DNA from: Bryobacter sp.
GTDB taxonomy: Bacteria; Acidobacteriota; Terriglobia; Bryobacterales; Bryobacteraceae
Length of the DNA stretch: 64,000 bases
Assembly: GCA_022843605.1 (NCBI GenBank)
Contig: JALHNI010000003.1
Span: forward strand, 1-64,000
Direction of reading: 5' to 3'
A model generated the notes under the pieces. It saw nothing but the letters and a program-made list of their open reading frames with translations. It was not told the origin of the DNA and did not search any database. Below, piece after piece: positions 5,623 through 20,778 of this stretch (the stretch's first letter is position 1; each line of letters begins with the position of its first letter). A program made the position numbers and the translations under genes.

Positions 5623-5751
5623 AACGCCTCCCAGTGTCACCGTAGCAGAAGACTGTAACCGAAATGGCGTTTTGGGCATCTGCCGATTCGTTAAACTGAA
5701 GGGGAGCCGGGCCATGCGTGCCCACCCGCTCCCGTGCAAGGACCCGAACCG

Positions 5752-7695
5752 TTGAGCTTAAAAACTACCGATGCCCCGACGAACTTTGAACCCAACGAGC
5801 GCTGGTCAGCAATCGACGCCAACGAACTCTACGACGTCAGCCGCTGGGGCAAAGGCTATTTCTCGGTTGGTCAGAACGGGCACTTGTGGGTGCACCCATC
5901 CAAAGAGCCCGGCCGTTCGATCGATCTCAAGAATCTGATCGATACGCTCCGGCTGCGCGGCATTCAGGCGCCGATCCTGATCCGTTTCGGTGAAATCCTG
6001 CGTCACCAATTGGGCGAGATCAACGACGCCTTTCAAGTCGCCATCAAGGAAAACGGCTACCAGGGCAAGTACATTTGCGTTTACCCGATCAAGGTGAATC
6101 AGCAGCGGCACGTGGTGGAAGAGGTGCTCGCTTACGGTAAGCAGTATGGCTTCGGCCTGGAGGCCGGCTCAAAGCCCGAACTGATGGCGGTGCTCGGCAT
6201 CACCGACGGCTCGACGCCGATTGTCTGCAACGGATTCAAGGACGACGAGTACATCGAGATGGTGATGCTCGCCAAGAAGATCGGCCGTAACATCACGCCG
6301 ATCATTGAGAAGTATACCGAGCTCGACCTGATCCTCAAGTACGCGGAGAAGACGGGCGCGAGGCCCACCATTGGTGTGCGCGTGAAGCTGGCGGCGCGGG
6401 GTTCCGGCCGTTGGAAGAGTTCGGGCGGCTATCGCTCGAAGTTCGGTTTGACGGTGAGCGAGGCGCTGAAAGTTCTGGCGGAGCTGAAGGCGCGGGGCAT
6501 GGAAGATTGCCTGGACCTGCTGCACTTCCACTTAGGCAGCCAGATTACGAACATTCGCCAAATCAAGGGCGCGGTGACGGAACTCGCCCGCATCTACGCT
6601 GACCTAAAGAAGCAGGGCGCGGGCCTGAAGTTCCTGGACGTCGGCGGTGGCCTGGGCATCGACTACGACGGCTCACAGACCGACTTCGAATCCAGCGTGA
6701 ACTACACGCTGCAGGAATACGCCAACGACGTGGTGCATCACATCCAGCATGTCTGCGACGAAGAGTCCGTGCCGCATCCTACCATCGTGACGGAGAGCGG
6801 ACGGGCGATCGCCGCTTATCACAGCGTGCTGGTATTTAATGTGGTGGGCGTCTCCGGCTTTGGCGACGAAGAACTGAAGGACGTCAGTTCAGAGGCCGAA
6901 CAGCCGCTGATCGACTTACAGGAGACGCACCGGTCGCTGACGCTTAAGAATCTGCTCGAGAGTTTCCACGATGCGCAGCAGGCACTGGATTCGGCGTTGA
7001 ATCTGTTCTCGCTCGGCTATATGTCGCTCGAACAGCGCAGCATGGCCGAGAATTACTATTGGACGATCTGCCGCCGGGTGCTGAACATGGCGCGCTCCTT
7101 GGATGTATTCCCCGAGGAACTCGAAGGGCTCGATAGCCTTCTGGCCGATACTTACTTCTGCAACTTCAGCCTGTTCCAATCGATGCCGGATAGCTGGGCC
7201 ATTAAGCAACTCTTCCCGGTGATGCCGATTCACCGGCTGAACGAACGTCCGCACCGCAAGGGCGTGCTGGGCGACGTATCCTGTGACTCGGACGGCAAGA
7301 TTGACCAGTTTATCGACCGGCGCGACGTCAAGAAGACGCTCCCGCTGCATCCCTTCACCGATGGCGAGTACTATCTCGGTGCTTTCCTTGTCGGGGCCTA
7401 TCAGGAAATTCTGGGTGACTTACACAACCTGTTCGGCGATACGAATGCCGTGCACATTAAGTTAAGTGATACCGGTTCCTACGAGCTCGAGCACTACGTG
7501 CCGGGCGATACGGTGCGCGAGGTGTTGGACTACGTGCAGTTCTCTTCCAAGGCCCTGCTGGAGCAGTTCCGGCGCGATGTGGAAGTTGCGCTGCGCGAAG
7601 GCCGGATTGGCTACGAAGAATCCGGGCGCCTGCTGCGCTTTTACGAAGACGGATTGCAGGGTTATACCTACCTGGAAGACGCCCACGTTAAGTAG
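5752..7695 (+). CDS. speA: Biosynthetic arginine decarboxylase (PLP-dependent)
   Basis: About 647 residues from the TTG at 5752 (AAGGA nine bases upstream); a GTG at 5734 in the same frame is the alternative. Catalyses arginine to agmatine plus CO2, the first step of polyamine synthesis. The PLP lysine lies in YPIKVNQQRHVVEEV; GLEAGSKPEL, the TIM-barrel 'HLGSQITNI' and 'DVGGGLGIDYDGS' phosphate-binding motif follow, and the second active-site region is 'CDSDGKI'. Length matches bacterial SpeA (about 630-660). Divergent from rimP across roughly 130 bases. The 3' end runs into the following RNA methyltransferase gene. Confidence 0.95.
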   Translation: MSLKTTDAPTNFEPNERWSAIDANELYDVSRWGKGYFSVGQNGHLWVHPSKEPGRSIDLKNLIDTLRLRGIQAPILIRFGEILRHQLGEINDAFQVAIKENGYQGKYICVYPIKVNQQRHVVEEVLAYGKQYGFGLEAGSKPELMAVLGITDGSTPIVCNGFKDDEYIEMVMLAKKIGRNITPIIEKYTELDLILKYAEKTGARPTIGVRVKLAARGSGRWKSSGGYRSKFGLTVSEALKVLAELKARGMEDCLDLLHFHLGSQITNIRQIKGAVTELARIYADLKKQGAGLKFLDVGGGLGIDYDGSQTDFESSVNYTLQEYANDVVHHIQHVCDEESVPHPTIVTESGRAIAAYHSVLVFNVVGVSGFGDEELKDVSSEAEQPLIDLQETHRSLTLKNLLESFHDAQQALDSALNLFSLGYMSLEQRSMAENYYWTICRRVLNMARSLDVFPEELEGLDSLLADTYFCNFSLFQSMPDSWAIKQLFPVMPIHRLNERPHRKGVLGDVSCDSDGKIDQFIDRRDVKKTLPLHPFTDGEYYLGAFLVGAYQEILGDLHNLFGDTNAVHIKLSDTGSYELEHYVPGDTVREVLDYVQFSSKALLEQFRRDVEVALREGRIGYEESGRLLRFYEDGLQGYTYLEDAHVK

Positions 7696-8386
7696 AGTCC
7701 ATGTCGTTTTAGTGACGCCGCGCAACCCCTTGAATATCGGGGCGGTGGCGCGCGCGGTGAGTAACTTCGGCTTCGAGAGTCTGCGCCTGGTGGACCCCTA
7801 CCGTGTCGCGATGGACGAAGCGCGTAGCGCACCTGGCGCCGGCGCCATTCTCGCCGCGGCGCGGGAGTTCGCGACGGTGGCTGAGGCGGTGGCCGATTGC
7901 GGTCTGGTGGTGGGAACGGCCTCGATGGACTTGCGTGAGTCCCGCATGCCGCTCGATCGTCTGGAGGATGCGGCTCCGTTCATTCGCGGTACGCCGGGGG
8001 ATGTCGCCCTGCTTTTCGGCTCAGAGAAGTACGGACTTTCGAACGACGACATCAGCTTCTGCCATCGGCTGGTGCGCATTCCGACGCGGCCGGAACATGG
8101 GTCAATGAACCTGGGCCAAGCCGTGGCGGTCTGTCTCTACGAATTGATCCGGGAACCTGGCTCCTTCCCGCCGGCGATCCGCCGGCAAGCACCGGCCGAG
8201 CAGTTGGACCGTTTGGCCGATGGCTGGCACGCCGTGTTGACGCAGGCCGAGTATGCGCAGATGCCCACCACCATGCACAAGATCCGCCGGCTACTGCGAA
8301 GGCTGCAGCTGTCGCCCAAGGACGCGCAAGCTGTGCAAGGGATGGTGCGTCAGGTGCTTTGGAAACTCGGAAGCAAGTTATCCTAG
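7607..8386 (+). CDS. SpoU/TrmJ-type RNA 2'-O-methyltransferase (start uncertain)
   Basis: SPOUT-class methyltransferase. The conserved core opens with 'VHVVLVTPRNPLNIGAVARA' from about base 7697, followed by 'NFGFESLRLVDP', 'LLFGSEKYGLSN' and 'IPTRPEHGSMNLGQAVAVCLYEL', the three SpoU motifs that form the knotted SAM site; a TrmJ-like C-terminal helix region with 'LRRLQLS' follows. No ATG, GTG or TTG lies just before the core. The nearest upstream in-frame start is TTG 7607, inside speA; GTG 7712 would cut into the first beta strand. The gene may therefore use a non-standard start or be coupled to speA termination. Target RNA not determined. Confidence 0.85.
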   Translation: MATKNPGACCAFTKTDCRVIPTWKTPTLSRVHVVLVTPRNPLNIGAVARAVSNFGFESLRLVDPYRVAMDEARSAPGAGAILAAAREFATVAEAVADCGLVVGTASMDLRESRMPLDRLEDAAPFIRGTPGDVALLFGSEKYGLSNDDISFCHRLVRIPTRPEHGSMNLGQAVAVCLYELIREPGSFPPAIRRQAPAEQLDRLADGWHAVLTQAEYAQMPTTMHKIRRLLRRLQLSPKDAQAVQGMVRQVLWKLGSKLS

Positions 8387-8392
8387 AAATAC

Positions 8393-8659
8393 ATGACGAA
8401 ATGCGAACGCACTTACGAGTTGGCCCGCCCGCTCGATGACGGCCTGCTGAAGCAAATCGGCGCGATGCAGGGCATTGTGGGGATTCAGAAGCTGCGGCCG
8501 TCTGCGCAAATGGATGCGATTACGGTGGGTTGGGATGCCGCCCGCCTTTCCATTCCGCAATTGGAAAGCCTGTTGGCGCAGCATGGCTTTTCGCTGAAGC
8601 CTTTCGTTCCCCCGCCACCGCCCGTGAAGCCCGAGCCGGCACCTGAAGCAAAGGGATGA
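8393..8659 (+). CDS. Small hypothetical protein between RNA methyltransferase and NadE
   Basis: 88 residues, ATG start six bases after the methyltransferase stop. The fold looks like a short beta-alpha-beta unit (GIVGIQKLRPSAQMDAITVGWDAARLS, then a helix ESLLAQHGFSL) followed by a Pro-rich tail (PPPPPVKPEPAPEAKG). The pattern vaguely resembles heavy-metal-associated ferredoxin-like domains, but there is no CxxC metal site. Its stop overlaps the nadE start (ATGA), so the two are translationally coupled. Function unknown. Confidence 0.7.
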   Translation: MTKCERTYELARPLDDGLLKQIGAMQGIVGIQKLRPSAQMDAITVGWDAARLSIPQLESLLAQHGFSLKPFVPPPPPVKPEPAPEAKG

Positions 8660-10287
8660 AAGTCGCCCTTGCCCAGTTCAATCCCACGGTTGGCGCGCTA
8701 GCGGCGAATGCCGATCGCATGGCGGCCATGGCGCGCGATGCGGCCGCGCGCGGCGCCGACATCGTCGCGTTTCCGGAACTGGCGATCTGCGGTTATCCGC
8801 CGCGCGACCTGCTGGAGAAGCCGAGTTTCGTTGAGGGCTGTGCGCGTGAAGTGGAGCGTCTCGCGGATCTCACTCAGGATCTGCCGCTGGCTTTGATTGT
8901 CGGCACGGTGGCCCCGAACGTCCAGACTGCCGGCAAGCACCTCGCGAATGCCGCTCAGGTGCTCGCCGGTGGCAAGATCATTTTCGAGCAGCGCAAGATG
9001 CTGCTGCCCACCTACGACGTCTTCGACGAGACCCGCTACTTCGTGCCTGGCGAGCGCCAATCGATTTGGGAGTATCGCGGCACGAAGATCGCCCTCACTA
9101 TCTGCGAAGATGCCTGGAACGACAAGCAATTTTGGGATCGCCCCTTGTATACCCGAGATCCGGTGGCTGAGTTGGCCGCGGCGGGCGCGGAGTTCCTGAT
9201 TTCGATTAACGGGTCGCCTTACCACTTAGGCAAACGCGCCCAGCGCCGGGAGATGTTCACCGCGTTGGCGGAACGTCATCGCATGCCCGTTTACTATGTG
9301 AATCAGGCCGGCGGCAACGATCAGTTGGTGTTCGACGGATCCAGCTTTGCGCTGTTGCCCGATGGAACCGAACTGGCGTCGGCCTTGTCGTTTGGCGAGG
9401 ACCTGATCCTACCGGGTGACCATCACGCGAATCTCAATGACGAGACGGAAGCAGTTTACGACGCCCTGGTGCTGGGCACGCGCGATTACATCGGGAAATG
9501 CGGCTTCAAGAAGGTGCTGATTGGCCTGTCCGGCGGCATTGACTCTTCGATCACCGCCGCCGTGGCGGTGGATGCCGTTGGTGCGGAGAACGTGATCGGC
9601 GTATCGATGCCGGGGCCTTACTCATCAGACCATTCGCTCACCGATGCGCGCGAGATGGCCCACAGTCTGGGCATCCGTTACGAGGTTTCGCCGATCACCG
9701 AAGTTTGCGGGGTTTTCGAACAGGTGCTGGAGCCCTTGTTCTTGGGCTACAAGCGCGATGTGACGGAGGAGAACTTGCAGGCGCGGCTGCGGGGAGTTAC
9801 TCTGATGGCTCTCTCGAATAAGTTCGGGGCGATGGTGCTGACCACGGGCAATAAGAGTGAGTTAGCCGTCGGCTACTGCACGCTGTATGGCGATATGTGC
9901 GGCGGTCTCGCGGTGATTAGCGATGTGCCGAAGACGCTGGTTTACGAGCTTTCGCGGGTGGCCAATCGCCGCCATCCGGGCGCGATTCCGGAGAACGTTT
10001 TCACCAAGCCGCCCTCGGCCGAGTTACGGCCGGACCAGAAGGACTCTGATTCGCTGCCGGAGTACGATGTCCTCGATGCGATTCTGAAGGGCTATGTGGA
10101 GGAGTGCAAGAGTCCCGCGGCGATTGCCGAGGAGTTGGCGTTGCCCCTGCCTCTGGTGCGCGACATCGCCAACAAGGTGGATCGCAACGAGTACAAGCGC
10201 CAGCAGGCCGCACCCGGCTTGAAGGTGACGACCAAAGCTTTCGGAATCGGCCGGCGGTTTCCCATCGCGCAGCGCTTTTCCGAATAG
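8656..10287 (+). CDS. nadE: Glutamine-dependent NAD+ synthetase
   Basis: 543 residues. Converts nicotinic acid adenine dinucleotide, ATP and glutamine to NAD+. The N-terminal nitrilase-type glutaminase domain (about 1-255) shows the Glu of 'FPELAICGYPPRDLL', a Lys in 'QRKMLLPTYDVFDE' and the nucleophile Cys150 in 'TICEDAWND'. The C-terminal ATP-pyrophosphatase domain has the P-loop 'GLSGGIDSS' (about 291-299) and 'TTGNKSELAVGYCTLYGD'. Length is typical for bacterial two-domain NadE. ATGA overlap with the preceding small gene; next gene starts one base after the stop. Confidence 0.96.
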   Translation: MKVALAQFNPTVGALAANADRMAAMARDAAARGADIVAFPELAICGYPPRDLLEKPSFVEGCAREVERLADLTQDLPLALIVGTVAPNVQTAGKHLANAAQVLAGGKIIFEQRKMLLPTYDVFDETRYFVPGERQSIWEYRGTKIALTICEDAWNDKQFWDRPLYTRDPVAELAAAGAEFLISINGSPYHLGKRAQRREMFTALAERHRMPVYYVNQAGGNDQLVFDGSSFALLPDGTELASALSFGEDLILPGDHHANLNDETEAVYDALVLGTRDYIGKCGFKKVLIGLSGGIDSSITAAVAVDAVGAENVIGVSMPGPYSSDHSLTDAREMAHSLGIRYEVSPITEVCGVFEQVLEPLFLGYKRDVTEENLQARLRGVTLMALSNKFGAMVLTTGNKSELAVGYCTLYGDMCGGLAVISDVPKTLVYELSRVANRRHPGAIPENVFTKPPSAELRPDQKDSDSLPEYDVLDAILKGYVEECKSPAAIAEELALPLPLVRDIANKVDRNEYKRQQAAPGLKVTTKAFGIGRRFPIAQRFSE

Positions 10288-11670
10288 ATGAAGCTCCTGA
10301 AGGCGATCGCCGAGAGCTTACGCGGCGAGCATCGCGACTATACCGCGGGCTCGTTGCACCAAGCCATTGTGCTGCTCAGCGTGCCCATGGTGCTGGAAAT
10401 GGCGATGGAATCGCTGTTTGTGGTGGTCGATATCTTTTGGGTGGCGCGTCTGGGTGAGCGGGCGGTCTCGGCGGTGGGCATCACCGAGGCGATGTATGCC
10501 ATCGTGTTTGCGGCGGCGATGGGCTTGAGCGCCGCTGCCACCGCGACTGTGGCCCGCCGGATCGGCGAGAAGAATCCGGAAGCGGCGAGCCATGCGGGCG
10601 CGCAGGCCATCATTCTCGGGGTGATCGTCTCTTTGGCCTTCGCCATTCCCGGCTACATCTACGGCACTGAGTTACTTGCCTGGATGTCCGGCTCCGCTGG
10701 CCTCGCGGCTTACGGCGGCAGTTTCACCAAGATCATGCTGGCGGGCACGCCGGGGGTGGTGCTGCTGTTCCTGAATAACGCAATCTTTCGTGGCGCAGGG
10801 AACGCAACGATCGCCATGCACGCACTCTGGCTGGCGAACATCTGCAACATGATTCTGGACCCGCTGTTTATTTTCGGCTGGGGCCCGGTGCCGGCGATGG
10901 GCGTGACGGGGGCCGCGGTCGCGACGGTGACCGGCCGTTCCGTCGGTGCGCTCTACGGTTTCTGGCGGCTCTACGAGGGCCGCGGCGAACTGCGATTGCG
11001 CCTTTCGCACTTCAGTTGGGACGTGCCGCTGATGAAGCAGTTATTCGGCATCGCCGCGCCGGCGGGCTTTCAGTATCTGGTGCCGACGGCGAGTTGGCTC
11101 GGCCTGATGCGGATTGTGGCGGTGTTCGGCGGCGCGGCGACGGCCGGATACACCATCGCCATTCGCATTATTGTGTTTGTCTTGCTGCCGGCTTGGGGCC
11201 TATCGAACGCGGCGGCGACGCTGGTGGGGCAGAACCTGGGCGCGAAACAGCCGGAACGCGCGGAGAAGTCCGTGCTGGCGTGCGGCTTCTACAACATGAC
11301 CTTCTTGATGACTGTCTCGGTGGGATTGATTCTGTTTGCCGAGCCGCTGGTGCACGTCTTTACCCAGGAGGAGGCGGTGGTGAAGGTGGCGGTGGAGTGC
11401 TTGCGCATCCTGAGTTACGGCTACGGCTTCTACGCCTGGGGCATGGTGCTGATTCAGGCCTTTAACGGCGCCGGCGATACGCGCATTCCGACGATCGTGA
11501 ACTTCGGCTGTTACTGGCTGTTTCAATTGCCTCTCGCCTATGCGTGGGCGAATTGGTGGGGCGGTGGAACGGCGGGTGTCTTCTGGGCGGTGCCGATGGC
11601 GGAATTGCTGTTGGCGGTGGTGGCTTACACCCTGTTCCGCCGGGGAGCCTGGAAGAATACGGTGGTGTGA
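10288..11670 (+). CDS. MATE family multidrug/metabolite efflux transporter
   Basis: 460 residues with about twelve membrane segments arranged in two similar halves. MATE proteins export cationic drugs or metabolites using Na+ or H+ gradients. Family features include 'SVPMVLEMAMESLFVVVDIFWVARLG' at the N-terminus, 'FLNNAIFRGAGNATIAM' after TM5 and the second-half equivalent 'LIQAFNGAGDTRIPTIVN'. The start follows nadE directly, and the TGA stop shares one base with the ATG of the radical SAM gene, so nadE, the exporter and the radical SAM gene probably form one transcript. Substrate cannot be deduced. Confidence 0.93.
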   Translation: MKLLKAIAESLRGEHRDYTAGSLHQAIVLLSVPMVLEMAMESLFVVVDIFWVARLGERAVSAVGITEAMYAIVFAAAMGLSAAATATVARRIGEKNPEAASHAGAQAIILGVIVSLAFAIPGYIYGTELLAWMSGSAGLAAYGGSFTKIMLAGTPGVVLLFLNNAIFRGAGNATIAMHALWLANICNMILDPLFIFGWGPVPAMGVTGAAVATVTGRSVGALYGFWRLYEGRGELRLRLSHFSWDVPLMKQLFGIAAPAGFQYLVPTASWLGLMRIVAVFGGAATAGYTIAIRIIVFVLLPAWGLSNAAATLVGQNLGAKQPERAEKSVLACGFYNMTFLMTVSVGLILFAEPLVHVFTQEEAVVKVAVECLRILSYGYGFYAWGMVLIQAFNGAGDTRIPTIVNFGCYWLFQLPLAYAWANWWGGGTAGVFWAVPMAELLLAVVAYTLFRRGAWKNTVV

Positions 11671-13004
11671 TGCGGGTTTTGCTCGTCAATACCTACGACC
11701 TGGGCCACCAGCCTTTTGGCCTGGCTTCGCCGGCCGCTTGGCTGCTGCGTGACGGACATCAGGTGACGTGCGCCGACCTGGCCGTCGGCCGGTTGCCGGC
11801 GGACCTGACCGATTTCGACTGCATCGCCTTCCATTTGCCGATGCACACGGCGACGCGGATGGCCGCGCCACTCATCCAACGAATGCGGCGGCTGCTTCCC
11901 AGCGTGCGGATTGCCTGCTACGGACTCTACGCGCCATTGAATGCCGAGTATCTGCGGGAGTTGGGTGCGGAGGCCGTGATCGGAGGCGAGTTTGAGCCAG
12001 GACTCGTGAACTGGGTGAACGGGGCTTCGGTGAACGGCGTTGCCCTGGAGCGGCTCGCTTTTATTCCGCCGCAACGTGATCTGTTGCCGGTGCTCGACAA
12101 CTACGCCAAGTTGCGCGTAGACGGTGAGGCCCGTACGGTGGGATACACCGAGGCGAGCCGTGGCTGCAAACACCGGTGCCGTCATTGTCCGGTGGTGAAC
12201 GTCTATGACGGGCGTTTCCGGGTGGTGTCGGGAGAGGTGGTGCTGGAGGATATCCGGCGGCAGGTGGCGGCCGGCGCGCAGCACATCACCTTCGGCGACC
12301 CTGACTTCTGGAACGGCCCGACGCACGCGGAGCGCATCGTGGAAGCGCTGCACGCCGAGTTTCCCGCGCTTACCTACGACGTGACGATTAAGGTGGAGCA
12401 TCTGCTGCAGAATCGCGGTGGCTTGGCGGGATTGCGGGAAACAGGTTGCCTGATGATCACCAGTGCCGTGGAGTGCCTGGACGACCGGGTGCTGGCGTTG
12501 CTGGAGAAGGGCCATACGAAGGCCGATTTCGTGGAGGCCGTCGGGTTGGTGCGGGAGGCGGGGCTGACGCTGGCCCCGACGTTCATCGCCTTTACGCCAT
12601 GGACGACGCGAGCAGCGTACATCGACTTATTGAGGACGTTGGCGGAATTGGAACTGGTGGAGAACGTATCGCCAGTGCAGTTGGCTTTGCGTTTGCTGAT
12701 TCCGACGGGGTCTCGGTTACTGGAGTTACCTGAAGTTCAGGCCGTGGTAACCGGGTTTGACCGCGAAGCTTTGTTGCATCGTTGGCAGCATCCGGATGGG
12801 GAGATGGACCAGTTGGCGGCGGCGGCGATCCGCATTGCCGGGAAGCGCGGCACGCGAGCGGAGATCTTCCGGCAACTGTGGGAGCAGGCCACGAACGGGG
12901 ACTATGAGACGCCGCCACTTCCGGCGCGCGCGACGGTCCCCTTTCTGGACGAGCCTTGGTACTGTTGAGCAGAACCAACTGACGACCAGTTGGCCGTCCT
13001 TTAA
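11670..13004 (+). CDS. CUAEP-tail radical SAM selenoprotein (B12-binding-like N-terminus), TGA read as selenocysteine
   Basis: ATG at 11670 overlaps the MATE stop by one base. The N-terminal ~120 residues look like a degenerate B12-binding/Rossmann module (MRVLLVNTYDLGHQP, then 'YLRELGAEAVIGGEFE'). The radical SAM cluster is C166-x3-C170-x2-C173 (SRGCKHRCRHC), followed by 'ITFGDPDFWNG'. The frame meets TGA at 12966-12968, but continues as Ala-Glu-Pro and then reaches TAA at 13002-13004; reading TGA as Sec gives a C432-U433-A434-E435-P436 tail and 444 residues. I recall that NCBI protein families include a 'CUAEP/CCAEP-tail radical SAM (seleno)protein' group, which fits exactly. A 7-bp hairpin lies just after the TGA, and the TAA falls two bases before the end of the convergent gene. 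If TGA stops translation, the protein is 432 residues ending in Cys. Substrate unknown. Confidence 0.85.
12966..12968 (+). other. Proposed selenocysteine codon (TGA) in C-U-A-E-P motif
   Basis: In-frame TGA preceded by TGT (Cys) and followed by GCA GAA CCA (Ala-Glu-Pro), then eight more codons and TAA. The match of the four surrounding residues to the known Cys-Sec/Cys-Ala-Glu-Pro tail is the main evidence. Whether the genome carries selA, selB, selC and selD cannot be seen in this window. Confidence 0.8.
12975..12993 (+). promoter_or_regulatory. SECIS-like hairpin just downstream of the proposed Sec codon
   Basis: CCAACTG (12975-12981) pairs perfectly with CAGTTGG (12987-12993) around the five-base loop ACGAC, beginning six bases after the TGA. 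Bacterial SECIS elements sit directly 3' of UGA. However, the usual loop lies 16 or more bases from UGA and starts with G; here it lies 13 bases away and has no G in its first two positions unless the closing G-C pair opens. So position fits and details deviate. Confidence 0.5.
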
Positions 13005-13006
13005 AC

Positions 13007-13252
13007 CTAGTCGAGCCAGAGCAGGCGCAAGATCGTTTCGCGCCGGCGGATGCCACTGCGCAATTCGCTGGATAGCTTAAACGCGCGCAAGGAGAGTAGC
13101 GCGGCGAAGCCGGTGCTGCCAAGCGCAAACCATTGCAGCCGGGTAAGTCCGCTGGCCCCCACGTACTCCAGGCCCAACGAGACGAGTACCACCAGGTTGA
13201 GTACTAAGACAAGGAGCAGGAGCAGAGGCAGACCTTTTTCTTTAATTTCCAT
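13007..13252 (-). CDS. Small two-helix membrane protein
   Basis: 81 residues. ATG follows GGAGGAA by about 6-7 bases. Two hydrophobic segments: LPLLLLLVLVLNLVVLVSLG (residues 8-27) and LQWFALGSTGFAALLSLRAF (about 39-58), then a basic tail (RSGIRRRETILRLL) likely on the cytoplasmic side. No family recognised. It converges on the radical SAM gene; the gap to its proposed TAA is only two bases. Confidence 0.65.
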   Translation of the reverse strand: MEIKEKGLPLLLLLVLVLNLVVLVSLGLEYVGASGLTRLQWFALGSTGFAALLSLRAFKLSSELRSGIRRRETILRLLWLD

Positions 13253-13351
13253 ACTGAATTTCCTCCAAGTACTTGTCGGCGCGGCGGGCCAGGAACTTTA
13301 GCCGATCTTGGCCCATTACGTTTGTATTGCAAGTTCGATATGATGCCGTCG

Positions 13352-15895
13352 ATGAAGCGCGCCTTACTCACACTGCTGGCCGCCGCGGCCGGCTTGTGCG
13401 CCGCGGACTTTAATCGCGACATTGCGCCGGTGCTGGCCGCGCGGTGCCTGAAGTGCCACGGGGCGGCGCTGCAATTGAGCGGCCTGGACCTGCGGACGCG
13501 CGAAACCGCTTTGCGTGGCGGCACACACGGACCAGCCTTGGTGCCGTCCGACCCGGCCAAGAGCTCGCTGTTCCGGATGATCAGCGGCGAACTGAAACCG
13601 GCCATGCCGATGGACGGGAAGCTGACGGCGGCGGAGATCGAGGCTTTTCGCGTCTGGATTGCCGAGGGCGCGGCGTGGGGCGTGGTGGCCACGAAAGATG
13701 TGAAGGCGGAACTGCTGGCGATGGAGAACAGTCCGGTTGCGCCGGCGGCCCGGGAGTGGTGGAGCTTCCGGCCGTTGCGGCGCCCCGCGCCACCGGCGCC
13801 GGGCCATCCGATTGATGCCTTTATCGCGGCGAAGCTGGCGGGGCTCTCGCCGGCCGCGCGGGCGGACCGCCGGACATTGATTCGGCGCGCGGCGCTCGAC
13901 CTGACCGGTCTTCCGCCGACACCCGGCGAGGTGGAGGCCTTCGTCGCCGACCCGTCGCCCCGGGCTTGGGAATCCGTGATCGACCGGCTGCTCGCTTCGC
14001 CTCACTATGGCGAACGGTGGGGGCGTCATTGGCTGGATGTGGCGCGCTATGCGGACTCGAACGGCTTCGAGCATGACTTTGACCGCCCGAATGCCTTCCG
14101 CTACCGCGACTATGTGATTCGCAGCTTCAACGAGGACAAGCCCTATGACCAGTTACTCAGGGAGCAACTGGCCGGCGATGAGTTAGCGGAGGTGACGCAC
14201 GACACGCTGACGGCGACGGGTTTTCTGCGGAACCATGCGAAGGTCGGCTTCCGGGAGAAGGACAATCCGGAGTTTCGCTACGAGTACCTGGACGACATGA
14301 TCGCGACCGTGGGACGGGGCGTGCTGGGGCTGACCGTGCAGTGCGCGCGGTGCCATAACCATAAGTTCGATCCAATTCCGCAGCGGGATTACTACCGGCT
14401 GCAGGCGACCCTGTTCGGAGTGGTGGAGGTGGAGCATCCGCTGGTGCCGGCGGCGCAGGCGGAGGCCTATCAGGCGGCGACCGCGAGGATCGACGGCGAG
14501 GTGAAGCAGCGGCGTGCCGCGATCGCGACGATTGAGGCGCCTTATCGTGCGCAACTGCTGCCCGCCAAGTACACGCGGTTTCCGAAGAACGTTCAGGAGG
14601 CGATTGCGACACCGGAGGCGCAGCGGACGCCGGGGCAGGTGCTGTTGGCGAACCAGGTGATCCGGACGGTGGGGGTGTCGCCGGCGGAGATCCAGAAGAT
14701 CATCAGTGCGGCAGACGCGGCTCGGGTGAATCTGCTGCGCGGCGAGATTGCGCAGCTGGAGAGCCAGCGGCCCGCGCCGATTCCGATGGCGATGGGCATT
14801 ACGGATGGCGACTATCGGTATACGCCGGACGGCGCGGGGGATGAGCCAGCGCCGGGCAAGGGTGTGACGCAGGTCGCGACGGGTGGCAGCTTTCTGCATC
14901 AGGGTGCCGGGCGGTATCAGGCGCCGCCTTCTTACTTCCTGCATCGCGGCGATATCGCTAACAAGGGCTCTGAGATGAAGCCGGGTTTCGTCACCGTCGC
15001 GTCGACGGTGGAGACGCCGGTTGCGCGGCCGCCCGCGCATGGGCGGACTTCGGGGCGGCGCCTGGCGCTGGCGGATTGGCTGGTCTCGGCCGAGAACCCT
15101 TTAACTGCGCGGGTGATCGTGAACCGCGTGTGGCATCACCACTTCGGACGAGGCTTGTTCGCTTCGCTCGACAACGTCGGCAAGATGGGAGACCTCCCGA
15201 CGCATCCAGAGTTACTCGACTATCTCGCCACGGAATTTCGCGAGACGGGCTGGAGTTTCAAACGGCTGCATAAGTTGATTCTGACTTCGGAAGCTTATCA
15301 GCGATCGTCGCAGGATGAGAATCCGCGGAACTTAGCCGCGGATCCGGCGAACTTACTCTTGTGGCGGTATCGGGCGCATCGGCTGGAGGCGGAAGCGGTA
15401 CGGGACCAGATGCTGGCGGTCAGCGGGGCGCTGAATCGGCAACTGTACGGTCCGGCGGTGTTTCCGCCGTTGGCCCCGGAGGTGTTGGCCCAAATGAAGA
15501 ATGGCATTTGGAAGCAACAGCCGGAGGCGGAGACTTACCGGCGAAGCGTTTATGTGTATCGTAAACGTGGACTGCCGTTTCCGATGTTCGAGGTGTTTGA
15601 CCTGCCGGACCAGAATCTGACTTGCGCCGGCCGGATGGTATCCACCGTGCCGACGCAGGCACTCACGCTGATGAATAACGACTTTGTGCTGGGGCAATCC
15701 CGGATGTTCGCCGCCCGCTTGCGGGAAGGCGCTTTGGACGCGGACCGGCAGATCGAGAATGCTTACCGAGTCGCTTTGGGACGGCCTCCGCGCGCGGAGG
15801 AACGCCGCCTGGCGGCCGATTATCTGAAGACGGGCACGCTGGAAGGCTTCGCGCACGTGCTGCTGAACCTGAACGAATTCGTCTATATCCGGTAG
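13352..15895 (+). CDS. Planctomycete-type cytochrome c / DUF1549 / DUF1553 exported protein
   Basis: About 847 residues. Start ATG 13352 opens the signal peptide MKRALLTLLAAAAGLCAA; ATGs at 13340 and 13343 add four residues. Domain order matches the common family: an N-terminal haem site CLKCHG (PSCyt1), then DUF1549 with 'DLTGLPPTPGEVEAF' and 'ERWGRHWLDVARYADSNG', a second CxxCH (CARCHNHKFDPI), and a C-terminal DUF1553 with 'RVIVNRVWHHHFGRGL', 'THPELLDYLA' and 'STVPTQALTLMNNDF'. Such proteins are abundant in Planctomycetes, Verrucomicrobia and Solibacter-like acidobacteria and are usually paired with a DUF1501 protein; no such partner is in the window. Probably periplasmic, function unproven. 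Confidence 0.92.
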   Translation: MKRALLTLLAAAAGLCAADFNRDIAPVLAARCLKCHGAALQLSGLDLRTRETALRGGTHGPALVPSDPAKSSLFRMISGELKPAMPMDGKLTAAEIEAFRVWIAEGAAWGVVATKDVKAELLAMENSPVAPAAREWWSFRPLRRPAPPAPGHPIDAFIAAKLAGLSPAARADRRTLIRRAALDLTGLPPTPGEVEAFVADPSPRAWESVIDRLLASPHYGERWGRHWLDVARYADSNGFEHDFDRPNAFRYRDYVIRSFNEDKPYDQLLREQLAGDELAEVTHDTLTATGFLRNHAKVGFREKDNPEFRYEYLDDMIATVGRGVLGLTVQCARCHNHKFDPIPQRDYYRLQATLFGVVEVEHPLVPAAQAEAYQAATARIDGEVKQRRAAIATIEAPYRAQLLPAKYTRFPKNVQEAIATPEAQRTPGQVLLANQVIRTVGVSPAEIQKIISAADAARVNLLRGEIAQLESQRPAPIPMAMGITDGDYRYTPDGAGDEPAPGKGVTQVATGGSFLHQGAGRYQAPPSYFLHRGDIANKGSEMKPGFVTVASTVETPVARPPAHGRTSGRRLALADWLVSAENPLTARVIVNRVWHHHFGRGLFASLDNVGKMGDLPTHPELLDYLATEFRETGWSFKRLHKLILTSEAYQRSSQDENPRNLAADPANLLLWRYRAHRLEAEAVRDQMLAVSGALNRQLYGPAVFPPLAPEVLAQMKNGIWKQQPEAETYRRSVYVYRKRGLPFPMFEVFDLPDQNLTCAGRMVSTVPTQALTLMNNDFVLGQSRMFAARLREGALDADRQIENAYRVALGRPPRAEERRLAADYLKTGTLEGFAHVLLNLNEFVYIR

Positions 15896-15906
15896 TGGCG
15901 GATGCG

Positions 15907-17430
15907 TTAGTGCCGGAAGTGCCGTACGCCCGTGAACACCATGGCCAATCCTAAGCGATTGGCGGCGGCAATCACATCGGGATCCTTGACGGAGCCGCCG
16001 GGCTGAATGGCGGCGGTGATGCCATGCTTGGCGGCTTCTTCCAGGCCATCGGGGAAGGGGAAGAAGGCGTCGGAAGCTACGACAGAACCGGTGAGCGGCA
16101 GGTGCGACTTCATGGCGCCGACCTTGACGGAATCGACGCGGCTCATCTGTCCGGCGCCGGCGCTGACAGCCTGGCCGGGCCGCGCGTAAAGGATGGCGTT
16201 GGACTTGAGGTGCTTTACGACTTTCCAGCCGAAGCGCAGGGCGTGCCATTCTTCGGGCGTTGGCTGGCGCTCGGTGACGACGCGGGCGTCGGCGAGTTGG
16301 GCACGGTCAGCCGTTTGGACGAGGTAGCCGCCGGAGATGCTCTTGACGACTGGTTCCGCGAGGTCGGTGGTGGCGACGCGGAGGACGCGCAGGTTCTTTT
16401 TGGCGGCCAGGATCTGCAGGGCCTCGTCGCGGTAGCCCGGGGCGGCGATGGCTTCGGTGAAGAGCTTGGCGACTTCGGTGGCCGTGGCAGCGTCCAGGGG
16501 GCGGTTGAAAGCGAGCACGCCGCCGAAGGCCGAGATGGGGTCGGCTTCAAGAGCGAGGGCGTAGGCTTCCACCAGGGTGTTGGCTTCGGCGCAGCCGCAG
16601 GGGTTGGTGTGCTTGATGATGGCGCAGGCGGGCAGTTCGGTGAACTCGTTGATCAACTGCCAGGCGGCGTCGAGGTCGACCAGGTTGTTGTAGGAAAGCT
16701 CCTTGCCCTGCAACTGTTCCGCGCCGGCGATGCCGGTGGCGCGGGTGGAGTAAAGCGCGGCGGACTGGTGTGGATTTTCGCCGTAGCGTAGGTCGAAAGC
16801 CTTGGGGACTTGCAAGTCGAGCGTGGCGGGCAGCGTGGCAGGAGGCGCGTCGATTTGGGCGAGGCGAGCGGTAATCGCACGGTCATAGGCGGCGGTGCGG
16901 GCGAAGGCCTTGCGGGCCAGTTCCCAGCGATAGGCGGGTGGCAACTCGCCGTGCTCGCGCAGGAGGCGGATGGTTTCGTCATAGTCGGCGGGAGAGGTGA
17001 CGACGCCGACGCTTTCGTAGTTTTTGGCGGCGGCGCGGATCATGGTGGGTCCGCCGATGTCGATGTTCTCGATTAACTGCTCAACGGTGACGCCGGTCTG
17101 GGCGGCCACTTTCTCGAACTCGTAGAGGTTGACGCAGACGAGGTCAATGGGGGGAATGCCGTGTTCCCGCATCGCGGCCAGATGGGCGGGCTGATCGCGG
17201 CGCGCGAGCATGCCACCGGCGATCCGCGGATGAATGGTCTTGAGGCGGCCGTCCATCATTTCGGGGAAGCCGGTGACTTCGCTGACATCGCGGACCGGGA
17301 TGCCGGCGGTGGCGATAGCTTTGGCGGTGCCGCCGGTGGAGACGAGTTCCACGCCGAATTGGTGGAGGGCCCGGGCGAAATCGACCAGGCCGGTTTTGTC
17401 AGTAACGCTCAACAGCGCGCGTGCAATCAT
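15907..17430 (-). CDS. purH: Bifunctional AICAR formyltransferase / IMP cyclohydrolase
   Basis: 507 residues. Catalyses the last two steps of de novo IMP synthesis. The N-terminal IMPCH domain starts '[15 protein letters not shown]', followed by '[11 protein letters not shown]', '[18 protein letters not shown]' and '[13 protein letters not shown]'. The AICAR transformylase domain shows '[13 protein letters not shown]', 'KHTNPCGCA' with the catalytic Lys-His, '[12 protein letters not shown]', and '[10 protein letters not shown]'. Length is normal. Divergent from hpnE with only about 30 bases between starts, so their promoters must overlap or lie inside coding sequence. Confidence 0.97.
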
Positions 17431-17460
17431 GAACCTCTATTCTCGCGCAATAATCAAAAG

Positions 17461-18798
17461 GTGGCCCATCCGATCGCTCCTCAGTCAGTTGGAAAGGTAG
17501 CGATTCTGGGGGGTGGCCTGGCCGGTTTGGCGGCTGCGGCAGCCTTGGGCGGGGCCGGCTACGATGTGGATCTCTTCGAAGCGCGCCCCTATTTCGGCGG
17601 GCGGGCGACCTCCTACGCGATTGCCGAAGAGACGATCGACAACTGCCAGCACATCCTGTTGCGTTGCTGCGTGAATCTGATGGATTTCTACGAACGTCTG
17701 GGGGCGGCCGGCGAGATCGAGTTTCACCGCAACATCGACTTTATTGAGCCCGGCGGGCGAACTTCCCGCCTTTATGCCGGCTGGTTGCCGCCGCCGCTGC
17801 ACTTTGCGAGCGCGTTTTCGAGGGCGACCTGGCTGACCTGGGGTGAGAAGTTCGCTCTGGGCCGAGGATTGTTGGCCATGCGGCAGCAGCGGCTGACTCG
17901 GACTGACTTGGATGCCATCACGATGCAGGCGTGGCTTGAGCAAAATCACCAGCCGCCGAGGGTGATCGAGCGGTTTTGGCGGCAGGTATTGGTGAGTGCG
18001 ATCAACGAAGAGCTGCACCTGATGTCGGCGGCGCATGGATTTCAGGTCTTCTGGCTCGGTTTTCTGGCGGGGCCGGACTTCTACGAGATGGGCATCCCCG
18101 CGGTGCCGCTGGCGGAGCTTTACGGGCAGGCGCGCTGGGAACGCTATCCCCAGGTGCGCTTGCGGGGACGGACGCCGGTGGAAGCGGTGAGATTCGACGG
18201 GGCCCGCATCAGTGGCATCGTGGCCGGGGGCGAACTGCAGACGGCCGATGCGTACGTGAGCGCGCTGCCGTTTGAGAAGGCGCAGCCACTGCTGCCGCCA
18301 TTGCCCATCGACTGGACGGCGTTTACGCACTCGCCGATTACGGGCATTCACCTGTGGTTCGATCGTCCGGTGACGCAGTTGCCGCATGGCACTCTGTTGG
18401 ACCGGACGATTCAATGGTTCTTCAACAAGGATGAGGGCCGCTATCTGCAGGTGGTGGTATCGGCGTCGCGCAGCTTGACGGAGATGGCGCGGGGCGACGT
18501 GATCGCGCTCACTTTGCGCGAGCTTGCGGAATTCTTGCCGACCGTGCACGAGGCGCAACTCGTGAAGGCGCATGTGGTGAAGGAGGTGCGGGCGACGTTT
18601 TCGGCGTGCCCGGGCCTGGAAGCGAAGCGTCCGCCGGCAAAGACCCACTTCGAGAATCTGTTTCTGGCGGGCGACTGGACGCGTTCGGGATGGCCCGCCA
18701 CGATGGAAGGCGCGGTGCGCAGCGGCTATCTGGCGGCTGAAGCGGTAGCCGAGAGTCTGGGGCGGCCATTGAAGTTCCTGAAGCCCGATGTCGCCTGA
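17461..18798 (+). CDS. hpnE: Hydroxysqualene dehydroxylase HpnE
   Basis: 445 residues, GTG start at 17461; extending upstream would run into purH antisense. FAD-dependent amine-oxidase-fold enzyme that reduces hydroxysqualene to squalene in the HpnC-HpnD-HpnE route feeding hopanoids. The dinucleotide site GGGLAGLAAAAAL lies near residues 14-26, followed by 'FEARPYFGGRATSY', 'DNCQHILLRCCVNLMDFYERLG' (a pattern typical of HpnE/phytoene-desaturase relatives) and the C-terminal FAD motif 'NLFLAGDWTRSGWPATMEGAVRSG'. No hpnC, hpnD or shc lies in the window. A carotenoid desaturase is the alternative, but the QH and C-terminal pattern favours HpnE. Confidence 0.88.
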   Translation: MAHPIAPQSVGKVAILGGGLAGLAAAAALGGAGYDVDLFEARPYFGGRATSYAIAEETIDNCQHILLRCCVNLMDFYERLGAAGEIEFHRNIDFIEPGGRTSRLYAGWLPPPLHFASAFSRATWLTWGEKFALGRGLLAMRQQRLTRTDLDAITMQAWLEQNHQPPRVIERFWRQVLVSAINEELHLMSAAHGFQVFWLGFLAGPDFYEMGIPAVPLAELYGQARWERYPQVRLRGRTPVEAVRFDGARISGIVAGGELQTADAYVSALPFEKAQPLLPPLPIDWTAFTHSPITGIHLWFDRPVTQLPHGTLLDRTIQWFFNKDEGRYLQVVVSASRSLTEMARGDVIALTLRELAEFLPTVHEAQLVKAHVVKEVRATFSACPGLEAKRPPAKTHFENLFLAGDWTRSGWPATMEGAVRSGYLAAEAVAESLGRPLKFLKPDVA

Positions 18799-18811
18799 TA
18801 GGATGGCAGCC

Positions 18812-19882
18812 ATGATGCGGCTCCTGATGGTTGCCCTAGTGAGTTGCTCCGTTGCGGCTCAGCCGGCTCCGCCGCCCTTTGCGGCGACCATCGCTGAGTT
18901 CTCTGAGCCCAGCGGTTTCTTTGATACCGACAATCTGATTTCGAACGAGCGAACGTTTCTGCATGTAACGGGCCCGATGAAGCGGCAAGGGGTGACGGGT
19001 GGCCTCTACATCGGCGTCGGTCCGGACCAGAACTTCTCCTATATCGCGCAGATCCGGCCGGCGATCGCGTTCCTGGTGGACATCCGGCGGGACAACCTGC
19101 TGGGGCATCTGATGTTTCGCGCGCTCTTTGAAATGGCCCGGACGAGGACCGAGTATCTGTGCCTGTGGCTGGCGCGGACGTGCCCGGCCCGGGAGATCGA
19201 GAGCATCGAGAAGCTGGTGGAGGCGATCGACAAGGCGCCCGCGCCTCGCGAACGTTTTGACGCGGCGGCCACCGCGGTGCGTGAGCGGGTGCTGACTTAT
19301 GGAGTAGATCTCTCGAAGGACGACTTGCAGGTGATCCGGCGGATCCACGAGCGGTTTGCGTCCGCAGGGCTGAACTTGAAGTTTGAGACGCACGGCCGCC
19401 GGCAGCAGGACTACTATCCGCGGCTGCGTGAGCTGATTCTAGGGCGGGACGCCGGTGGCCAATACGCGAGCTACCTGGCGTCGGACGAGCGCTATCAGAC
19501 AGTGAGGAAGATGCAGGCCGCCGGGCGCATCATCCCGGTGGTTGGCAACCTGGCGGGCCCGCAGGCGTTGCGGCGAATCGCGGTTTATGCGAAGGCCAAT
19601 CAATTGACGCTGTCGGCTTTCTACGCGTCGAACGTCGAGCAATATCTCTTCCGCAGCCGTGGAGATTTCGGTCGTTTTGCGGGCAATCTGCTGGCCTTGC
19701 CGCATACTCCGGGGACCGTCATCATTCGCAGTTGCTTTGGGCTCTATGCCCGCGGCCTTGCACCGGAAGGGAGTTATAGCGCGCAGTTGCTGCAACCGGT
19801 GGAAGAACTGATTGCCGCGCAGGCTCGGGGCAAGATCTCGGGTTTTGAGGATCTGGTGCGGTTGAGCGAGGTGGGCCGCTAG
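18812..19882 (+). CDS. Secreted conserved protein of unknown function
   Basis: 356 residues from ATG 18812, which opens a signal peptide (MMRLLMVALVSCSVAAQ). The mature protein has 'SEPSGFFDTDNLISNERTFL', 'GGLYIGVGPDQNFSYIAQIRP', 'FLVDIRRDNLLGHLMFRALFEMA' and 'RIIPVVGNLAGPQALRRIA'. The arrangement of a GxGxxxN loop, a 'DIRR' strand end and a later 'VVGNLAG' suggests a Rossmann-like fold, but I cannot name a family with confidence. Upstream it nearly touches hpnE; downstream it overlaps the phosphotriesterase-like gene by 4 bases, tail to tail. Confidence 0.8.
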   Translation: MMRLLMVALVSCSVAAQPAPPPFAATIAEFSEPSGFFDTDNLISNERTFLHVTGPMKRQGVTGGLYIGVGPDQNFSYIAQIRPAIAFLVDIRRDNLLGHLMFRALFEMARTRTEYLCLWLARTCPAREIESIEKLVEAIDKAPAPRERFDAAATAVRERVLTYGVDLSKDDLQVIRRIHERFASAGLNLKFETHGRRQQDYYPRLRELILGRDAGGQYASYLASDERYQTVRKMQAAGRIIPVVGNLAGPQALRRIAVYAKANQLTLSAFYASNVEQYLFRSRGDFGRFAGNLLALPHTPGTVIIRSCFGLYARGLAPEGSYSAQLLQPVEELIAAQARGKISGFEDLVRLSEVGR

Positions 19883-20778
19883 CGGCCGAAGGCGCGGCGG
19901 GGATTGGTCCAGAGCAATTGGGTGCGGGTGGCGGCATCAAGCTTGGGCAGCAAGTCGGTATAGAGGCAGGTGTAGCCGCGATAGTCGCCACCGCGCGGTT
20001 CGCCGACGTGATACCAGCCGGCGTCGTGCGAAATGAGCGTGCGGTGGAGCATTTTGTGTTCCGCCATGAAGCGGATGCAGTCGAGGTGCCACTGAAGCGA
20101 GCCCGGGCTGATGCCATCGAACTCCACCCAGCCGCCGCTTTCCGCCACTCGCTGATGGATGGCATGGTCGCGTTCACTTTGCGCATGCACCCAGACCCAC
20201 TTGGCCGGCGAATGGCGCATCGTCCGCAGGATGGAAAGTTGTTCGAGCGCGGCGGCGCCGTTGCCGGTGTGTACCGCGATGGTGAGGCCGGTGGCGCGGG
20301 AGGTGAGCACGGCCGCCTCTACCAGTTTGCGATCGAGCGGATGCAACGGACCGCGGTTGACGCCGATTTTGATGAAGCGCGGGCGGACGCCGTCGATGCC
20401 GCCGCGCGCTTCGGCGATCCAGCGGGCGGCGAGTTCGCTGGCGGACTCCCGGCGGGCAAAGTCGGGCAGGTATTTGAAGTCGCCGGCGCCGTAGAGGCCG
20501 GTATTGGTCCAGAGTTCGAGGCCGGAGTCGCGGGCCAGCCGTTGCAGGAGTAGGGGATCGCGGCCGAGGAAGTTGGGGGTGCACTCGAGCAATCGCCGGC
20601 AGCCCAGAGCGTGGAGCGCCTTGAGGTGGGGCAGGGCAATGGCGGCCACTTCGTCGGGTTGGTAGCGGCCCGGCCGGATGGCCGCGGCGCCCACGAAATC
20701 CACCATCACATGTTCATGGACGAGGATACTCGGGGTGGCCTGGGCCAGGGGAGCCAAAAGGAAGTCGCGGCGTTGCAT
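19879..20778 (-). CDS. Phosphotriesterase-family metal hydrolase, exported
   Basis: 299 residues. The first residues (MQRRDFLLAPLAQATP) look like a short Tat-type leader. Metal-binding motifs of the phosphotriesterase/Php family are present: HEH at about 21-23 (ILVHEHVMVDF), the bridging Lys region 'RFIKIGVNRGPL', His in 'TIAVHTGNG', His in 'VWVHAQSERD', and the Asp of 'LISHDAGWY'. Physiological members hydrolyse lactones or phosphoesters; this one is short compared with PTE (about 330). Probably a periplasmic lactonase-like enzyme; substrate unknown. Confidence 0.82.
   Translation of the reverse strand: MQRRDFLLAPLAQATPSILVHEHVMVDFVGAAAIRPGRYQPDEVAAIALPHLKALHALGCRRLLECTPNFLGRDPLLLQRLARDSGLELWTNTGLYGAGDFKYLPDFARRESASELAARWIAEARGGIDGVRPRFIKIGVNRGPLHPLDRKLVEAAVLTSRATGLTIAVHTGNGAAALEQLSILRTMRHSPAKWVWVHAQSERDHAIHQRVAESGGWVEFDGISPGSLQWHLDCIRFMAEHKMLHRTLISHDAGWYHVGEPRGGDYRGYTCLYTDLLPKLDAATRTQLLWTNPRRAFGR

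What the first reader, a model, noticed from the sequence alone, without database searches (positions are those of the whole stretch)
11670..13004. Radical SAM selenoprotein with an in-frame TGA in a C-U-A-E-P tail
The frame of the radical SAM gene reaches TGA after Cys432, but the next codons are Ala-Glu-Pro and a TAA follows 33 bases later, two bases before the convergent gene ends. Seen directly: TGT-TGA-GCA-GAA-CCA and a Cys3 radical SAM cluster (C166, C170, C173). Known: I recall an NCBI family whose members end in CUAEP or CCAEP, radical SAM (seleno)proteins of unknown function. Inference: TGA codes selenocysteine, and ordinary gene callers would truncate the protein. A Cys-Sec pair at the flexible tail suggests redox chemistry or metal/substrate capture.
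Basis: partly seen in the sequence, partly recalled or inferred. Interest (0 to 1): 0.95.

Follow-up and report, generated by a model that had tools for sequence, protein, structure and literature searches.

The report
Selenium enzyme with obligate ligase partner
A bacterial gene for a radical-SAM enzyme carries an in-frame TGA that is predicted to encode selenocysteine in a Cys-Sec-Ala-Glu-Pro tail, and the family co-occurs almost perfectly with one ligase gene in the sampled genomes, so the two enzymes would likely build an unknown small molecule, possibly one containing arsenic or a similar element.

Summary
TGA at 12966-12968 follows Cys432 and precedes Ala-Glu-Pro; the frame ends at TAA 13002-13004. 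The read-through protein is a clear member of NCBIfam NF040546, "CUAEP/CCAEP-tail radical SAM (seleno)protein" (595 bits, cut-off 500). In 80 of 80 fetched relatives this codon is TGA (59) or Cys (21), and a hairpin just after it is kept beyond codon constraint in the TGA forms. The genome has selA, selB, selC and selD. Selenium itself was not shown.

New here: (1) the family is the sister of ArsL, the arsinothricin enzyme proposed to attach a SAM-derived aminocarboxypropyl group to arsenite; both end in a Cys-Cys or Cys-Sec pair; (2) in 396 phylum genomes it co-occurs with one ATP-grasp ligase subfamily (60 of 61 genomes with the family, 8 of 335 without), most often as the next gene. In the window's genome the ligase gene is unlinked.

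Best reading: the Cys-Sec tail likely holds a soft element at the SAM site, the enzyme makes an amino acid containing it, and the ligase couples that. The element is inferred; no arsenic gene was found nearby.

The parts
11670..13004 (+). CUAEP/CCAEP-tail radical SAM gene read through the TGA (444 aa, Sec433 predicted)
   Evidence: NF040546, 595.1 bits, cut-off 500
12165..12188 (+). CX3CX2C motif (C166, C170, C173), predicted [4Fe-4S] ligands
   Evidence: invariant in 82 of 82 family rows and 4 of 4 ArsL-type rows
12447..12449 (+). Cys260, conserved in this family (81 of 82) and absent from the 4 ArsL-type proteins; candidate third soft ligand (inference)
12963..12977 (+). TGT-TGA-GCA-GAA-CCA: Cys432-Sec433-Ala-Glu-Pro; TGA at 12966-12968
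   Evidence: homologous codon TGA 59, Cys 21 of 80
12981..12998 (+). candidate bacterial SECIS hairpin, stem GACG(A)CC / GG(C)CGUC, loop AGUU at 12988-12991, one A-C mismatch; a competing hairpin lies at 12975-12993
   Evidence: family covariation and codon-preserving shuffles; folds of the window piece
10288..11670 (+). MATE efflux transporter, overlaps the radical SAM start by one base; found beside the gene only in the same-genus genome, so probably not part of the conserved system
   Evidence: 88% identical MATE in L174, no hit in the other 115 loci searched, many with short flanks
13007..13252 (-). convergent 81-aa ORF without family match; probably not part of the system
   Evidence: no hit in 116 related loci

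Best explanation
This gene belongs to NCBIfam's CUAEP/CCAEP-tail radical SAM family and its TGA is predicted to be read as selenocysteine; the Cys432-Sec433 pair likely holds a soft element such as arsenite beside the [4Fe-4S]-bound SAM, the enzyme would attach a SAM-derived group to it, and the co-occurring ATP-grasp ligase would then join that unusual amino acid to another one. Shown by sequence and calls: the TGA, its Cys counterpart in relatives, selA/B/C/D in the genome, the hairpin constraint in TGA forms, the sister relation to ArsL with the same core residues, and the near-perfect co-occurrence with one ATP-grasp subfamily in the phylum sample. Inferred: Sec insertion itself, element binding by Cys-Sec (perhaps with Cys260), the 3-amino-3-carboxypropyl chemistry (itself only proposed for ArsL in the paper read), the identity of the element, and the peptide product.
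For: Sec: TGA 59 / Cys 21 / other 0 of 80 loci; at least 9 forced Sec-Cys switches on a tree built without the tail, 12 at the fewest on that tree; selB over cut-off in 44 of 46 TGA-form and 5 of 10 stop-free Acidobacteriota genomes (Fisher p 0.0012), and in 11 of 12 against 4 of 8 among 20 other genomes; own selC, selB, selA, selD over cut-off (anticodon TCA). Hairpin: 5.78 of 6 pairs in 58 TGA forms, codon-preserving null 3.80, sd 0.09; 3.76 in 21 Cys forms. ArsL kinship: second-best family NF040542 at 253.8 bits, collinear core, 52 positions conserved in both, the Cys pair among them, ArsL rows a separate sister. Partner: ATP-grasp_4 + LAL_C2 protein (L118), in 60 of 61 genomes with the family and 8 of 335 without (3 of those 8 hold a fragment of it), p 6e-61, not corrected for relatedness; 35 of 61 pairs lie within 600 bases in four arrangements, 25 of them downstream on the same strand. 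Three of four ArsL-type clusters viewed also hold an ATP-grasp gene. Cys-Sec ('CU') is the motif listed for several organometal selenoproteins (HgcA, SaoL, SaoC, MbdU) in table passages of PMC13188914.
Against: No arsenic gene was found near the window gene (nine neighbours scanned) or among the recurrent neighbours that were annotated; of 76 non-ligase operon candidates only 42 were scanned, with three more from L096 and the window's MATE, and only the first 25 families are listed. The genome has no ArsN1b arsinothricin acetyltransferase at E 0.001. The ArsL cut-off and RCCLKC tail are not met. The ATP-grasp genes of ArsL clusters are only 18-22% identical to the L118 partner, so they are hardly its orthologues. 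Two Acidobacteriota TGA-form genomes and one other MAG lack a selB over cut-off. The window's own hairpin scores 5 of 6, not above its codon-preserving null (P 0.38). The window's ligase gene is not linked to it. No coordinates of the model could be read, so the tail was not shown to reach the cluster.
Confidence: 0.4

Rival explanations
1. The enzyme is a Sec protein of the same two-gene pathway, but its radical acts on an organic amino acid or peptide by ordinary 5'-deoxyadenosyl chemistry; the Cys-Sec tail closes the active site or gives a hydrogen atom, and the ATP-grasp ligase couples the product.
Against: Nearest other sequence family is ArsL, which shares the terminal Cys pair and the core residues; Cys-Sec rather than Cys-x-x-Sec.
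Confidence: 0.3
2. The Cys-Sec tail is a redox shuttle, as in mammalian thioredoxin reductase (recalled), that reduces a disulfide or the substrate after each turnover.
For: A weakly predicted stretch at 411-420 precedes the tail; L101 has two TGA in a row; adjacent Cys-Sec near the C terminus recalls TrxR.
Against: No reductase or thioredoxin-like family is among the annotated recurrent neighbours or the first 25 families; Trp430 and Glu428 invariant and the piece before the pair is moderately ordered; the four ArsL-type proteins have three tail cysteines.
Confidence: 0.15
3. Same capture chemistry, but for another soft element (mercury, antimony, tellurium, selenium or a metal) and for detoxification or a metal-binding compound.
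For: In L096 and L107 the gene is followed by DUF169, CpaM methyltransferase and an HgcAB-like fusion; Nfu-like proteins just upstream in five loci.
Against: The HgcAB-like cluster was seen beside the gene in only 2 of 81 loci; the nearest characterised enzyme acts on arsenite.
Confidence: 0.12
4. TGA is a real stop; the conserved AEP is a relic of a Cys-form ancestor.
For: Selenium incorporation was not measured; the window hairpin has a mismatch; three TGA-form genomes lack selB over cut-off.
Against: 59 TGA forms keep AEP, with third-position variation only in the 57 aligned and the window, covarying hairpin, Sec machinery.
Confidence: 0.03

Closest known systems
NCBIfam NF040546, CUAEP/CCAEP-tail radical SAM (seleno)protein
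   Same: Full-length match over cut-off, same tail, Sec or Cys at the same place
   Different: Nothing; it is a member. The family's description gives no function.
ArsL (NF040542, RCCLKC-tail), arsinothricin biosynthesis
   Same: Collinear radical SAM core, 52 conserved positions in common, terminal Cys pair, an ATP-grasp gene in 3 of 4 clusters viewed
   Different: Below the ArsL cut-off; predicted Sec in place of one Cys; about 30 extra residues before the pair in the window protein, more in others; no third tail Cys; Cys260, His59, His172 and His282 only here; no ars gene found nearby
L-amino acid ligases of the ATP-grasp class (BacD, DdaF)
   Same: Partner protein of L118 has ATPgrasp_N, ATP-grasp_4 and LAL_C2 domains
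   Different: Far below the cut-offs of BacD and DdaF; a separate subfamily tied to this radical SAM family
AprD4, radical SAM diol dehydratase (6fd2)
   Different: 20% identity; aligned range ends at residue 411, before the tail; different chemistry

Membership tests
NF040546 CUAEP/CCAEP-tail radical SAM (seleno)protein | HMM score over curated cut-off of 500 bits | tested here: met
   595.1 bits, residues 3-442
NF040546 CUAEP/CCAEP-tail radical SAM (seleno)protein | C-U-A-E-P or C-C-A-E-P tail | tested here: met
   TGT-TGA-GCA-GAA-CCA
Selenoprotein | Sec machinery selA, selB, selC, selD in the genome | tested here: met
   479.3, 356.8, 71.2 and 375.8 bits, each over cut-off; anticodon TCA
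Selenoprotein | TGA aligned with Cys in homologues, with conserved sequence on both sides | tested here: met
   59 TGA, 21 Cys of 80
Selenoprotein | constrained hairpin just downstream of the TGA, in the family | tested here: met
   58 TGA forms 5.78 of 6 pairs against a codon-preserving null of 3.80; covariation
Selenoprotein | SECIS hairpin in the window gene itself | tested here: inconclusive
   5 of 6 pairs, null reaches that in 38%; a competing fold is the minimum; no Rfam match
Selenoprotein | Selenium in the protein | not testable with these tools
   needs 75Se labelling or mass spectrometry
ArsL (NF040542) | HMM score over cut-off of 450 bits | tested here: not met
   253.8 bits
ArsL (NF040542) | RCCLKC C terminus | tested here: not met
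   tail is CUAEPTDDQLAVL
ArsL (NF040542) | arsenic gene neighbourhood (arsM, arsR, arsQ) | tested here: not met
   nine neighbours at 5734-20778 plus the MATE and the 81-aa ORF: speA, TrmJ-like, NAD synthase, purH, HpnE, others unnamed, no ars family
ArsL-like chemistry | transfer of the 3-amino-3-carboxypropyl group to arsenite | not testable with these tools
   enzyme assay needed
Cobalamin-dependent radical SAM | DxHxxG cobalamin motif in the N domain | tested here: not met
   absent in the query, in the first 120 residues of 82 of 82 family rows and of 4 of 4 ArsL-type rows; Pfam B12-binding 19.5 bits, cut-off 32.1

The most novel reading that the evidence does not exclude
A widespread two-enzyme pathway of soil and thermophilic bacteria makes organoarsenical (or other organometalloid) amino-acid peptides: a selenocysteine-tailed sister of ArsL captures the element with Cys-Sec and builds the carbon-element bond, and its obligate ATP-grasp partner caps it as a peptide.
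Probability: 0.25. Interest if true: 0.88.

Novelty: new member of a known kind. Interest (0 to 1): 0.62.

Why it matters
The family is named in NCBIfam but I found no printed function (term 'CUAEP': 0 papers of the library; 'CCAEP' and 'NF040546' absent from the main text of the 2026 review PMC13188914; the two Haft papers most likely to treat it are not held, so this is not proof of absence). Tying it to ArsL and to one ligase turns an unexplained selenoprotein family, over cut-off in 61 of 396 sampled Acidobacteriota genomes and 54 of 101 of the window's own bacterial family, into a testable two-gene pathway. If the product holds arsenic or another soft element, soil organometalloid chemistry would have a large hidden source.

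Tried and rejected
Rejected: TGA as plain stop; cobalamin dependence; the MATE exporter as part of the conserved system (hit only in the same-genus L174 among 116 loci); the convergent 81-aa ORF (no hit). YggX-like Fe trafficking genes (21 of 81 loci; one member named by Pfam) may be neighbourhood carried along in related genomes; not tested further. Led nowhere: folding 60 bases from before the TGA (z -0.6); Rfam around the TGA (nothing at E up to 1); PDB sequence search (nothing at E 0.001); plasmid search with the ligase (best 31% identity); simple energy comparison of TGA and Cys forms (energies not different, p 0.46; mononucleotide-shuffle z-scores differ, p 0.0008); paper searches on HgcAB-like fusions. 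ArsL-type ATP-grasp as orthologue of the partner: 18-22% identity to L118's, not supported. The model's coordinates are not given by the tool, so the tail-to-cluster distance was not measured.

Papers: PMC8552651 outline with abstract and two named sections; PMC13188914 found passages only; all others seen only as search listings. How thioredoxin reductase works, that Cys-x-x-Sec is the usual redox motif, and what AprD4 does beyond its PDB title are recalled.
Full report
1. The observation. The gene runs from ATG 11670 to TAA 13002-13004 if the TGA at 12966-12968 is read. It has C166, C170 and C173 in a CX3CX2C motif and the tail Y-C-U-A-E-P-T-D-D-Q-L-A-V-L. The details in the finding are right, including the 33 bases to the TAA and the two bases to the end of the convergent ORF.

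2. What it is. The read-through protein scores 595.1 bits on NCBIfam NF040546, CUAEP/CCAEP-tail radical SAM (seleno)protein (cut-off 500), and 253.8 bits on NF040542, ArsL (cut-off 450, not met).

3. Is the TGA selenocysteine? Eighty loci from titled genome records of several phyla were fetched with a 26-row alignment. All 80 hold the tail: TGA in 59, TGC in 16, TGT in 5, nothing else. On a tree made without the tail the Sec/Cys state needs at least 9 changes on well supported branches and 12 at the fewest on the tree itself. After the TGA, the first two positions of the Ala, Glu and Pro codons are invariant in 58 of 58 sequences while the third positions vary (L075 and L097 were left out as too short). 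One Chloroflexi locus, L101, has TGATGA: two TGA in a row, in place of Cys-Sec.

4. Machinery. The genome has selC (71.2 bits, anticodon TCA), selB (356.8), selA (479.3) and selD (375.8), each over cut-off. In 396 Acidobacteriota genomes 61 pass the NF040546 cut-off: 46 with a TGA inside the match, 10 complete matches without a stop (counted as Cys forms), 5 cut short before the tail (counted). For 23 of the 46 and 5 of the 10 the codon was read in the fetched locus and agrees. SelB is over cut-off in 44 of 46 TGA forms, 5 of 10 Cys forms and 200 of 335 genomes without the family over cut-off. I classed single genomes by best E-value, since bit scores were listed only for the best places; no listed E-value fell between 4e-65 and 3e-79. 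Twenty of the 80 loci, most with record titles outside Acidobacteriota, gave selB in 11 of 12 TGA forms and 4 of 8 Cys forms (completeness not told). The three TGA-form exceptions are G110 (95% complete), G287 (75% complete) and the MAG of L132.

5. Hairpin. Counting the T of TGA as 0, bases 16-21 pair with 26-31 or 27-32 (loop AGUU or AGGUU type). The 58 TGA forms average 5.78 of 6 pairs; codon-preserving shuffles give 3.80 (sd 0.09); 21 Cys forms give 3.76 against 3.22 (sd 0.18). On the alignment 4 of 6 pairs change on both sides in some sequences and the paired share falls from 88.5% to 46-56% when slid; in Cys forms it is 52.5%. The window itself scores 5 of 6 with one A-C mismatch, which alone is not above its null (P 0.38); the same-genus gene in L174 reads GACGGCC-AGUU-GGCUGUC there, fully paired by inspection, one pair being G-U. 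A competing hairpin (-9.6 kcal/mol, z -2.28) is the minimum-energy fold of the window's 36-base piece. Rfam gave no match. So the SECIS claim rests on the family.

6. ArsL. In a joint alignment with four RCCLKC-tail proteins (one annotated ArsL) the core is collinear and 52 positions are conserved in both (95% or more of 82 rows, 4 of 4 ArsL-type), among them the cluster cysteines, D210, D212, D237, H244, E268, K280, R341 and the Cys pair at 432-433. The pair is aligned across a long gap, so its equivalence is an alignment result, not a proof. Class-specific to the CUAEP family are H59, H172, H282 and C260 (81 of 82). ArsL rows are a separate sister. ArsL is proposed to move the 3-amino-3-carboxypropyl group of SAM to arsenite (abstract and discussion of PMC8552651); in that paper E. 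coli cells carrying arsL made hydroxyarsinothricin.

7. Partner. Clustering 1096 neighbour ORFs of 81 loci (80 plus the window) gave one dominant family, an ATP-grasp protein, in 38 of 81 loci and as the next gene on the same strand in 31; many loci are cut by contig ends. In the representative L118 Pfam finds ATPgrasp_N, ATP-grasp_4 and LAL_C2; in L129, where it lies upstream, ATPgrasp_N and ATP-grasp_4 but no LAL_C2 in the list. A profile of 19 of them searched in the same 396 genomes at E 1e-60 hits 68 genomes: 60 of 61 with the radical SAM gene over cut-off and 8 of 335 without, three of the eight holding a fragment of it (p 6e-61, not corrected for relatedness). Of the 61, 35 have the two genes within 600 bases (25 same strand downstream, 6 convergent, 2 same strand upstream, 2 divergent), 7 lie further apart on one contig, 18 on different contigs, 1 lacks it (G335, 74% complete). 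In the window's genome the partner is unlinked, G000:C107:2965-4170, 58% identical to the one in L061. Linkage in four arrangements, and co-occurrence without linkage, make a functional tie much more likely than shared inheritance of one block. The test was made in one phylum only.

8. Context against arsenic. The scanned window neighbours are speA, a TrmJ-like methyltransferase, NAD synthase, purH, HpnE and unnamed genes, no ars family. Among recurrent neighbours that were annotated none is an ars family (42 of 76 non-ligase operon candidates scanned, the others left out by eye as probable spurious ORFs). The own genome lacks ArsN1b; the wider test of that family did not run. ArsL-type clusters do hold ars genes and, in Priestia, Alicyclobacillus and Pantoea, an ATP-grasp gene, but that ATP-grasp is only 18-22% identical to the L118 partner. 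In L096 and L107 the radical SAM gene is followed by DUF169, the methyltransferase CpaM and an HgcAB-like fusion (members not scanned singly are covered by the tallies), a hint at soft-element chemistry. The 2026 review lists CU motifs for HgcA, SaoL, SaoC and MbdU.

10. Verdict. A genuine, probably selenocysteine-containing member of a named but unexplained family (Sec about 0.95, my estimate). Function: element capture by Cys-Sec and an ArsL-like step followed by ligation, 0.4; the element is open.

Noticed in passing
L101, gene 6197-7597 (Chloroflexi MAG): Two consecutive in-frame TGA codons, ...SWY-U-U-AEP: the neighbouring Cys codon is replaced by TGA as well.
   Followed up: partly
L136 (Thermomicrobium roseum DSM 5159 plasmid NC_011961.1), 7935-9371: RefSeq CDS WP_012643191.1 is named CUAEP/CCAEP-tail protein but ends at the TGA before AEP; the read-through form scores 782 bits on NF040546.
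   Followed up: yes
L096 10363-13039 and L107 11169-13903: Radical SAM gene followed by DUF169, CpaM methyltransferase and an HgcAB-like fusion gene.
   Followed up: partly
L072 (CALQBJ020000119.1): Record titled Bifidobacterium breve carries a Cys-form gene that groups with an Acidobacteriota MAG; probably a mislabelled bin.
   Followed up: no
L099, L108, L110, L118, L130 upstream of the gene: Nfu/NifU-type Fe-S scaffold proteins just upstream in several phyla.
   Followed up: no
G404:C164:2438-3652: A relative from the window's bacterial family with an in-frame TAA and a match ending before the tail; possibly a decayed copy.
   Followed up: no
window 13007-13252, minus strand: 81-aa convergent ORF with no family match and no hit in 116 related loci.
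   Followed up: partly
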